From Lacrimispora sp. (GTDB taxonomy: Bacteria > Bacillota > Clostridia > Lachnospirales > Lachnospiraceae): 45,550 nucleotides of DNA. Below, piece after piece: positions 110 to 4,268 of the stretch (positions are counted from its first letter, which is position 1; every line of letters starts with the position of its first letter). Under the pieces are notes generated by a model that did not search any database, was not told the origin of the DNA, and saw only the letters and a program-made list of their open reading frames with translations. The position numbers and the translations under genes were made by a program. Location: the NCBI GenBank assembly GCA_029256305.1, contig JAQSYE010000002.1, positions 1-45,550 of the forward strand. The letters run 5' to 3'.

Positions 110-174
110 ATGAAAAAGAAATTTCCTGCTAATTTACACTTGACTTTTCATAGCTGGTCTCCTATTGATTCGTT

Positions 175-475
175 CCCTTAGTCTTGGTGATATGTATGGA
201 TTTTTAGCTTATTGTCAAGATACTCTTCATTCTACTCCTGGCACCAGAACAAGAAAAATTGTTTCTATTCAGCAATTCTGGAATTACCTCAAAACCAAAG
301 CACCTCTAATTGAATAAATCCAAAAGTTTTGTGTCTGCACATAAACTTAGACATACCGCGCTACATTAATGTATAAATATTGCCGGGTAGACATCCGTTC
401 TCTTCAACAACTTCTCGAACATGAAAGTATCGCAACAACGGAGATCTACACACATGTTGATGAAAGCCAGTTATT
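175..475 (+). pseudogene. Tyrosine recombinase/integrase remnant (internally deleted and frameshifted)
   Basis: Reads SLGDMYGFLAYCQDTLHSTPGTRTRKIVSIQQFWNYLKTKAPLIE* (core-binding-like), then KSFVSAHKLRHTA / TLMYKYCRVDIRSLQQLLEHESIATTEIYTHVDESQLL (HxxR box and C-terminal Tyr region) across a frameshift near 355-365. The middle catalytic region is missing. Confidence 0.7.
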
Positions 476-977
476 AAAGCAGCCCTTCAATCCAACGTCT
501 CATAAAATTCCAGTCTTTTACACTGCCATCTTCAGTTAAAATTCCAAGGTAAATTCCATCCCCTTTGCCAACCTGCCATATTGCCTGAGCAGAATTGTCT
601 TTATCGCTTATTCCATGATCTTTTATATATTTATAAAATCTTTCTTTTCCTAATCCATAGTTTTCAGCTACATATGCAACCAAATAAATATCAATAACAC
701 TTGCACCAAGATCAACCGGCCTACATGAAAGAATATGACCTCTAATAATATCTTTCCATAATTCTGGTTGAGATAATAGTATCCTATTTTTAATACCATC
801 AGTTAAATACGCTTTATAACTTCTCTTTTCCCATTGTTTTAATTGTGATGTGTCTCCTCCCAAATCAACTAGTCTGTTAATCATATTTTTCAAATTACAT
901 ACAGTAGGTATTACCTTCTTCTCTATACTTCTTCCTCTCAATTCATCCGGTAATTTATTTTTTTCTTTTTGTATCAA
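474..977 (-). CDS. Hypothetical protein, 167 aa, accessory
   Basis: Open frame with TTG start; GGGG-containing Shine-Dalgarno-like sequence (AGAAAGGGGTAAATA) upstream. No family recognised. Confidence 0.6.
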   Translation of the reverse strand: MIQKEKNKLPDELRGRSIEKKVIPTVCNLKNMINRLVDLGGDTSQLKQWEKRSYKAYLTDGIKNRILLSQPELWKDIIRGHILSCRPVDLGASVIDIYLVAYVAENYGLGKERFYKYIKDHGISDKDNSAQAIWQVGKGDGIYLGILTEDGSVKDWNFMRRWIEGLL

Positions 978-1130
978 TATATTTACCCCTTTCTAAATTT
1001 ATTTTTGGAGTTTAATAAATGCAATTATCCAATAATTATAAGTTTTAATACGCACAGCTTTTTATAAATATAATGGGAAATTGGCTTAACCTAACTTCAG
1101 GCTATGCTCATTTCTCAACATAGCATTTAA

Positions 1131-3746
1131 TTAATTTATCTTTTCACGGCACACTTTTGTAATATGATTAATCTGCCATTCTTCTCCCGCTATTTTTCCG
1201 ATAACAGCAGAATAATATACGTCGTCTGTAGACTTCATTATATGTTCACTTGACTCAGAAACATTAATGTCCCATGCATTTAATATTGCATTAATTACCA
1301 TACTTTCTATTGAACTATCGTCCAACTCCTCCCGATTTTTCAACGGCCATAGAGTATAATTCCTACTTTGTAAAATGCTTAAGTATCCCGTACTACACCA
1401 TAATACATTATTGTTGAAATTAACTTTCAAGCCAGTTGGCAAATCATCAATTTTAATTGATATTGAAGCATCTTGAACCAAAATATACTCAGTGTTATCG
1501 CTTTCCCTTACTAAATTATATATATCTTCATATTTCAAATATCCTCTATAGTTTTCTGCAATACACAGTAACTTCGGTTTTATTCCAAATGCACAAAACA
1601 CATCAGCAAAATCTTTTTGTGTTTTCTTATCCAATCCTCTATCGACAAGTTGATTCATCTGATTATCTACCCAACTTATCAACACTTCATTTTGAATAAC
1701 AGGTTCACTAGTTTCTCTTGATGCTTGAACACCTTTTCCTATTAATACACCCAAAACACCTGATAACGGTGTTGTTGAAAAACCACCTAATATGACATAT
1801 CCCCTTGCATCCGTATGAAAATTATATTCACGATATATCATAGCTCTTCCATATACAAATCCATCCTTTTCAATAATCTGCATATTATCTGCCATTTGCT
1901 CAATTAATTCACTTTCATTCTGCTCCATTCTCATATAATTATGCGGCCCCATTAATCTTTTAATAAATTCAATCGGAGCAATTTTCAGCCAGTCATTTGC
2001 CTCTTCAATTAATCTCTTCTCTCCATCATTTATCCATAAATTTCAGTCTAAGCAGGGACATAGTTTTGCAATAGTATTATCAATTGATTCCTCTATCCTA
2101 TTAATCTGCAGTATTTTTCGAAAAATATTTTTTTGAGTTCTAACCTTAATTATCGTTCCTCCATCTTTAATTTGCTCATTTTTTTGAGCCTTTCTTAAAA
2201 TAGGTCTACTATCTGTTCCTTTTTTAAATTCCAATACTAAAGTATCTTCTCTTGCTGCATCATATCTTTTTGAGATAACTGTTACATCATACGACCATAT
2301 AAAAACAGAGTAGAAACCTATTCCATACTGCCCCGTCGATGAAAATCCCTTTGAAGATAATCCAGGTAATTCATCATACATTAATTCAGTATTCCAGAAT
2401 GATTGACCAAAATCCAAAAAAGGTCCCATTAATACTTTTTGTGACATACCTATGCCATTGTCGTCAATTTGTATAATCTTGTAATCTTCTTCATCATAGA
2501 ATGAAACCGTTATATTACCAATATATTCCTCATCATCTTCTAATATTTTTCTAGCTCTAATAGCATCTCCACCATTTTGTATCAGTTCTCTCATTGGAAC
2601 CAAAAAATTATTCCCATATAACTGAGTTCCTCCTAAATTAGAGACTAATTTTCCGACATTTCCCACACGTATGCTGGTATCTAATGGTACCCATTCACTA
2701 ACCAAAACATTATTTGATAACTCTTTTGCATTTGATATCCCCCCAACACCAGTTACAGCAAATTGTTTATGATCTGTTTCTATCAGTAACGTATCTACTG
2801 CCCCCAACTCTCTATTAATCATTTTTAAAGTGTCATAGCATGTCCACCATGCTTCCATTTCATCTATGGAAAATGAAGACTTTGATGTATATAAAATTCT
2901 TCCATTGTTCACCATAGGTTGATATAGCTTATTTTGAAATATCCAGTGTATCTTAGAAACATCCTTCGGCTTTCTTAGTTTCAACAAGAAAATAGGGGCT
3001 CGTCTATCGTCAATTTGTGTTGCATCAGCTATTCTTAAAATACATGCCAATTTTATTACATCTACTGTCCATTCTTTAGGAAATATACTTATAGCCCCTA
3101 AATATTTATTTTGAAATTCTTTTTTTAGTTTATCAATATTCCACCAATGACTATATGCAATTAATCCAACAATTTCACCATAAGCTTCTCTTAAAATTAT
3201 ATTGTCAATTAACCATTCTCTCTTACCCTCAAATTCCCACTCTAATGTCGGTAATTTTACTGCTTGCACTGCATGTAATTTTCGTAACGTATTTTCCTGT
3301 GCTAAACTTTTAATCTCAGGTTCAAGACATTTCCAGTCTTTTTCCTCGATCTTTCTTCCATATCTTTTATTAAATTCTGTAGCAACCGTGTCTTTCCATA
3401 TACTTAGTTGTTTTATTTCCTCTTCACCATTTGTATATGCTACTAATCCCATTCCCAAATCATGAATCAAAAAGGCAACACCAAGGACATATCCCTCTAC
3501 TGGATTTAATTCATACGCCTCGGGCAATATGATATCTGTTGCCTCCCATAATGCATCTATGTGGGTAATATCGTGCACCGTATAATTCGGTAAAAATCTA
3601 GCAATTTCACTTGCTAAATATATCGATTTTTTCCTAATACTCATATATGAATTTTTCAAATGACTTATGTATTCTTGCATGCTAGTATCTTCATTATTTA
3701 GACCAAGCGTTTTTTTCCATGTTACACTATTTATATAGTTGTCCAT
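1131..3746 (-). pseudogene. HD domain + Hsp90-like GHKL ATPase protein, interrupted by an in-frame TGA at about 2043-2045
   Basis: ORF 2043..3812 has HD-like motifs (YTVHDITHID; FLIHDLGMG) and GHKL boxes (ELIQNGGDAIRA, IDDNGIGMS, GQYGIGFYSVF). After the TGA the same frame continues NLWINDGEKRLIEEANDWLKIAPIEFIKRLMGPHNYM... into ORF 1131..1952. Likely start is MDNYINS at 3746, preceded by GGGGGATTAAT. Confidence 0.75.
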
Positions 3747-4268
3747 ATTAATCCCCCGTTCATTATGTATAATATTAAATTTACTTCCTATTATTGCTAT
3801 AATATGAACCATCTTTTTTATTAATTCAGCTTTCTTCTTGCCTAAATACTTATTATTATTTTATGACAAATTGTAGAATAATTCAATCAAATAATCAGAA
3901 TTTATCTTTCGATTTTCTAATTACATTATCTATCTTTAATTAGGTCATCAGGCCTTAATTCTCAAAGTTTCTCTTTCAAATTTTCTAGAAATTTGACTCC
4001 ACACATCGTATTGCAATCTATCCACTGTATCAATAATTTCACTTATAAAACAGCCATGCCAAAAATCTTCCCCCCGCTTCCCCCTTCTAAAAGTAATTAA
4101 TTCTCATTAACTCCCCCCAACCAAAGCTATTTTAAAAACGCCACAAAACAACCTTGACACCTTAACATTTCTTATGTTATAGTTTGTGACAGTTAGCTTC
4201 CACTAACCTTTATATAACACTCTACATCCACCTCCACAACTAACAAGAAAGGTTAAAAGAAATATTAC

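What the first reader, a model, noticed from the sequence alone, without database searches (positions are those of the whole stretch)
1131..3746. HD-Hsp90 (GHKL) conflict-type gene split by a single in-frame TGA
ORFs 2043-3812 and 1131-1952 lie in exactly the same frame. After the TGA the frame stays open for about 30 codons with protein-like sequence (NLWINDGEKRLIEEANDWLKIAPIEFIKRL) before the second ORF's annotated ATG. That points to one ancestral ~870-aa protein. HD + Hsp90-like ATPase proteins have been proposed as conflict/defence elements, so this may be a recently inactivated defence gene, a programmed readthrough, or an assembly error.
Basis: partly seen in the sequence, partly recalled or inferred. 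Interest (0 to 1): 0.66.

Follow-up and report, generated by a model that had tools for sequence, protein, structure and literature searches.

The report
Nonsense-interrupted HD–Hsp90 gene in island
A bacterial gene for a large HD-enzyme/Hsp90-type ATPase protein, found elsewhere as prophage and plasmid cargo and probably a virus-defence gene, has been cut in two here by one premature stop codon; it looks like a young, ordinary loss of function (or a single-base assembly error), not a special decoding trick.

Summary
ORFs 2043-3812 and 1131-1952 (minus strand) share one frame, separated only by TGA 2043-2045. They form one 871-codon gene starting at ATG 3746.

All 23 homologues found (about 28-44% identical, from Lachnospiraceae, Proteobacteria, Actinobacteria, an archaeon and phage contigs) are single uninterrupted ORFs of about 850-920 aa. 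At the TGA column they carry V16, I4, M, S, C. None ends at 'LCPCLD'.

The protein is HD-CE (PF24391) plus an Hsp90-like N+M module. The stop falls at the N/M boundary, before the first strand of the M-like part. The 303 codons after it remain open, with all eight near-invariant residues kept and no excess divergence, so the stop is young.

Selenocysteine is unlikely: no tRNA-Sec or SelB was found, no SECIS-like hairpin follows, and the column is hydrophobic. Separate translation of the C-part is unlikely (weak ribosome binding). About 27 flanking core genes carry no internal stops, so the assembly is locally good, but without reads a single-base error cannot be excluded.

The gene sits at a variable site beside a decayed integrase. 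Homologues are prophage or plasmid cargo near RloB and TIR genes, so a defence role is plausible but unproven. Verdict: recently inactivated member of a known domain family; low interest.

The parts
1131..3746 (-). whole interrupted gene, 871 codons plus stop, HD-CE + Hsp90-like (N+M)
2043..2045 (-). premature TGA (codon 568); homologues have V/I/M/S/C here
2805..3593 (-). HD-CE domain (PF24391), residues 52-314; H58, H95-D96 and D241 invariant among homologues
2127..2639 (-). Hsp90-type GHKL ATPase (N domain), about residues 370-540; N391, D429-x-G-x-G, G472-G477 motifs intact
1134..2042 (-). C-terminal part lost from the truncated product; middle (M)-domain-like fold, fast-evolving in all homologues; 8 of 8 near-invariant positions kept
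3753..3757 (-). GGGGG ribosome-binding site before ATG 3746
3858..3886 (-). promoter-like TTGAAT-17-TAAAAT (consensus match only), inside DNA (3844-3905) that is 80-85% conserved in genus relatives lacking the gene
158..1087 (.). island segment 97.8% identical to another genus genome (G004:C1), where core DNA is only about 84% identical
474..977 (-). 167-aa ORF (TTG start) of unknown function, no Pfam match above cut-off, shared with G004 only; not found near other HD-CE/Hsp90 genes
158..480 (+). decayed tyrosine-recombinase (integrase) remnant with stops and frameshift, stops shared with G004

Best explanation
The locus is a horizontally acquired HD-CE/Hsp90-like gene at a variable chromosomal site, recently interrupted by a nonsense change at codon 568. 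Shown: one ancestral ORF, a stop at the N/M boundary, and an otherwise preserved reading frame. Inferred: the intact protein works as an ATP-driven clamp of the Hsp90 kind. ATP binding by the GHKL domain plus the middle domain (which in Hsp90 completes the ATPase site and holds the client) would switch the N-terminal HD phosphohydrolase, a nucleotide- or phosphoester-cleaving effector, on or off when the fast-evolving C-terminal part senses an invader. With the stop, only the 567-aa HD + ATPase half is made in quantity; it lacks the sensor/middle domain, so the system is most likely off.
For: Same frame and one TGA. Homologues unsplit, 23 of 23, and five more distant HD-CE/GHKL proteins also unsplit. 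Post-stop region open by far more than chance; no excess branch length (window 0.68 before and 1.12 after the stop; L035 0.39 and 0.76; L036 0.36 and 0.48); all 8 conserved post-stop residues kept. AlphaFold pLDDT 86, residue 568 directly before strand 569-573. Foldseek best matches are Hsp90/TRAP1/GRP94 over about 490 columns, E 1.6e-12. TGA is a normal stop here: 8 of 29 window genes end in it. The C-part start has a poor ribosome-binding site. Variable site, mobile and decaying neighbourhood. Homologues beside RloB and TIR-TPR genes and in prophage cargo positions.
Against: Only one sequence of this allele is held; no reads and no second strain. The truncated half keeps all HD and GHKL motifs and could retain some activity. 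Defence function has not been tested for this family; the window's neighbours within the contig are not recognised defence genes.
Confidence: 0.72

Rival explanations
1. Sequencing or assembly error: the strain's gene is intact and the TGA is a consensus mistake in a fragmented draft genome.
For: The genome is a draft of 319 contigs, 82% complete; the post-stop part looks fully alive; the gene lies near a contig end; one of the two nearest homologues has TGT, one base from TGA, here.
Against: About 27 syntenic genes in the rest of the window, compared with two relatives, carry no internal stop. The island DNA 158-1087 agrees at 97.8% with an independent genome. The bound from 30 clean kilobases is weak for a single event.
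Confidence: 0.16
2. Selenocysteine or other programmed UGA recoding: full-length protein is made by reading UGA as an amino acid.
For: 13 of 25 genus genomes have a tRNA-Sec above cut-off; the two nearest homologues have S and C at this column.
Against: In 23 homologues the column is V/I/M in 21, so it is not a redox site. The own genome has no tRNA-Sec or SelB above cut-off, and at the place where G017 carries selB, tRNA-Sec and glycine reductase, the own contig runs on without them. There is no hairpin after the UGA (z +0.55; 150 nt z +1.28). TGA ends 8 of 29 genes. The assembly is incomplete, so machinery in a gap is not strictly excluded.
Confidence: 0.02
3. Functional split or truncation: the stop is kept because a 567-aa HD + GHKL protein, with or without a separately translated C-part, still works.
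For: HD and GHKL motifs are intact upstream; Hsp90-type N domains bind ATP on their own (general knowledge); a modest ribosome-binding site exists at ATG 1934 (-4.7).
Against: No homologue is split at or near this point. The stop removes the M-like domain with eight near-invariant residues including R634 and R677. The C-part's first ATG has almost no ribosome-binding site (-0.9).
Confidence: 0.08

Closest known systems
HD-CE domain family (Pfam PF24391) fused to HATPase_c_3
   Same: HD-CE 1.3e-52 and HATPase_c_3 above cut-off; order HD then GHKL is the same as in distant relatives L002, L027, L032, L034
   Different: Belongs to a subfamily (23 members found here) with a distinct fast-evolving C-terminal part; this copy is interrupted
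Hsp90 / HtpG / TRAP1 / GRP94 (N + M domains)
   Same: GHKL domain matches Hsp90 profiles (HtpG 7.4e-15; PDB profile 2e-20); model aligns to Hsp90 N+M over about 490 residues
   Different: HD enzyme domain in front, score far below the HtpG equivalog cut-off (54 against 371 bits); sequence match beyond the N domain weak
VcSduA, Shedu type with N-terminal GHKL ATPase (PMC12137116)
   Same: A GHKL ATPase is proposed to control a hydrolytic effector domain in an anti-phage protein
   Different: Effector there is a PD-(D/E)xK nuclease (DUF4263); here an HD domain; no sequence match was sought or claimed
Phage RIIA proteins (T4-type)
   Same: Hsp90/GHKL-like fold, prominent among the matches to viral models
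   Different: 10-16% identity; a resemblance of fold only

Membership tests
HD-CE + Hsp90-like (GHKL) protein | HD-CE domain above Pfam cut-off | tested here: met
   179.6 bits, cut-off 27
HD-CE + Hsp90-like (GHKL) protein | HD metal-binding residues conserved | tested here: met
   H58, H95-D96, H158, H200, D241 invariant in 17-19 aligned members and present in the window protein
HD-CE + Hsp90-like (GHKL) protein | GHKL ATPase motifs (N box, G1, G2) | tested here: met
   E387, N391, D394; D429-G431-G433; G472-G475-G477; HATPase_c_3 27.6 bits, cut-off 25
HD-CE + Hsp90-like (GHKL) protein | one continuous polypeptide including the M-like C-terminal part | tested here: not met
   TGA at codon 568; all 23 homologues continuous. 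It is an interrupted member, not an intact one
Hsp90 chaperone (HtpG) | HtpG equivalog score | tested here: not met
   54.4 bits, cut-off 371
Known anti-phage system (PADLOC) | match to a catalogued defence protein | tested here: not met
   only TmtA, 26 residues of the GHKL motif, E 0.0026
Anti-phage defence gene | protects cells from phage | not testable with these tools
   context only
Selenoprotein | Sec machinery, SECIS, and Sec/Cys column | tested here: not met
   own assembly incomplete

The most novel reading that the evidence does not exclude
The subfamily is a single-gene anti-phage system not yet in PADLOC, in which an Hsp90-type ATP clamp gates an HD nucleotide hydrolase, and the TGA allele is an off-state kept in the population because the intact system is costly.
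Probability: 0.15. Interest if true: 0.5.

Novelty: new member of a known kind. Interest (0 to 1): 0.2.

Why it matters
On its own it documents decay of one accessory gene. Its use is indirect: intact relatives at prophage cargo sites (L047-L050, L110, L112, L113), on a plasmid beside a TIR protein (L031) and beside an RloB gene (L036) make the HD-CE/Hsp90 family a good candidate to test for phage defence, and the interrupted copy marks the N/M boundary and the C-terminal part as the piece whose loss should abolish function.

Tried and rejected
First genome and viral scans with the single protein found nothing; a three-sequence alignment gave the homologues. An exact DNA search around the TGA in viral contigs gave no second copy of this allele. 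No second copy in the own genome or in 396 other genomes of the family at E 1e-60, so the age of the stop could not be dated by near relatives. Pfam finds no named domain in the C-part, whether in the window or in L035/L036; the Pox_Rif match at 0.0066 is below cut-off and rejected. The 167-aa neighbour was considered as a partner gene: it has no counterpart near any other HD-CE/Hsp90 gene, and in G004 it stands near OLD- and Schlafen-type genes without one, so it is left out of the system. No paper in the held library that defines HD-CE was found, and the one I tried from memory is not held.

Full report
OBSERVATION. The minus-strand ORFs 2043-3812 and 1131-1952 are in one frame with a single TGA (2043-2045) between them. 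The coding start is most likely ATG 3746: its ribosome-binding site scores -8.6 kcal/mol against -0.3 for ATG 3812, and homologues align from that methionine. After the TGA the frame stays open for 303 codons (chance about 1e-13; the other two frames have 28 and 39 stops), and codon-position GC is alike before and after the stop (0.41/0.33/0.24 and 0.41/0.31/0.26).

WHAT IT IS. The part before the stop has HD-CE (PF24391, 1.3e-52) and a GHKL ATPase (HATPase_c_3 3.2e-6; HtpG model 7.4e-15). The part after it has no named domain. Reading through the TGA, AlphaFold gives a confident model (mean pLDDT 86, pTM 0.76, 17-row alignment). Foldseek aligns the model to Hsp90, TRAP1 and GRP94 N+M structures over about 490 columns (best E 1.6e-12), and a profile search of PDB sequences gives Hsp90-family proteins (2e-20). 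So the gene is HD + Hsp90-like N + M-like domain, and codon 568 lies directly before the first strand of the M-like part (569-573).

HOMOLOGUES ACROSS THE STOP. Alignment-based scans and tblastn brought in 23 relatives covering the site, some of them near-duplicates (L047/L048, L030/L041). All are single open frames of about 850-920 aa. The residue at the TGA column is V in 16, I in 4, and M, S and C once each; the two nearest, L035 and L036 (43-44% identity), have S and C. Five more distant HD-CE/GHKL proteins from relatives are also uninterrupted.

AGE OF THE STOP. The C-part evolves faster than the N-part in every lineage examined, and the window copy shows no excess: branch lengths before/after the stop are 0.68/1.12 for the window, 0.39/0.76 for L035 and 0.36/0.48 for L036. 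All eight positions conserved in at least 90% of members after the stop (W586, G633, R634, G655, G666, R677, W692, W800) are kept in the window copy. The interruption is therefore young, or is not real.

REAL MUTATION OR ERROR. Two genus relatives with the same core neighbourhood were compared gene by gene: about 27 genes in the rest of the window have no internal stop (the only exceptions were differences at the first codons of two genes and spurious antisense frames). This argues for good local sequence but cannot exclude one wrong base. The genome is a fragmented draft, and no reads are held.

RECODING. TGA ends 8 of 29 window genes, so it is an ordinary stop here. The own assembly has no tRNA-Sec or SelB above cut-off. 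Thirteen of 25 genus genomes do have tRNA-Sec, so I examined the place where relative G017 carries selB, tRNA-Sec and glycine reductase genes: the own contig C206 matches one side and runs on without them. No stable hairpin follows the UGA. Selenocysteine is therefore very unlikely. Separate translation of the C-part is also unlikely: ATG 1952 scores -0.9 kcal/mol and ATG 1934 -4.7.

SURROUNDINGS. GC is about 0.29-0.34 over 600-4200 against mostly 0.39-0.49 beyond it. Genus relatives share the core flank to about 3844 at roughly 76-85% identity and carry other genes beyond it. Window 158-1087 is 97.8% identical to a stretch of genome G004 lying elsewhere (C1), beside an OLD-like AAA/TOPRIM gene, a reverse transcriptase and a Schlafen AlbA_2 gene. 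That stretch carries an integrase remnant whose defects are shared by both genomes. The promoter-like site 3858-3886 lies in the DNA conserved in relatives, so the acquired gene may use a resident promoter (inference).

FUNCTION. Homologues sit next to RloB and an AAA_21 ATPase (L036), a TIR-TPR protein on a Zymomonas plasmid (L031), CI repressors (L047-L050, L109, L110), an integrase (L110), and portal or terminase genes (L112, L113). These are typical cargo positions for phage-defence genes (general knowledge), and the fast-evolving C-part fits a sensor. PADLOC has no model for the family. A GHKL ATPase controlling an effector in a defence protein has a published parallel in VcSduA (PMC12137116). 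The proposed mechanism, an Hsp90-type clamp gating an HD hydrolase, is inferred and not shown. Loss of the M-like part should switch it off.

VERDICT. A real, correctly described interruption of one gene. The most likely cause is a recent nonsense mutation in a mobile accessory gene, next an assembly error. It is ordinary for an accessory island.

Noticed in passing
158-480, + strand: Decayed tyrosine recombinase, with stops and a frameshift shared with genome G004, next to the contig end.
   Followed up: yes
1-105, + strand: Reading frame with 'MTIPGIGYINGGMIL', reminiscent of an IS110-type transposase end; Pfam did not confirm it.
   Followed up: partly
474-977, - strand: 167-aa ORF of unknown function, 97% identical to a copy in one other genus genome, in an island with OLD-like and Schlafen AlbA_2 genes.
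   Followed up: partly
L047-L050, L110, L112, L113: Intact HD-CE/Hsp90 genes as prophage cargo beside CI repressor, portal or terminase genes; the family is not in PADLOC and deserves a defence test.
   Followed up: partly
3844-4134 and corresponding positions in L089-L095: Variable insertion site in the genus: conserved core on one side, different accessory genes (acetyltransferases, kinases) on the other.
   Followed up: partly
G000:C206 against G017:C16: The selenocysteine locus (selB, tRNA-Sec, glycine reductase) of G017 is absent at this place in the own genome; tRNA-Sec is present in about half of the genus.
   Followed up: partly
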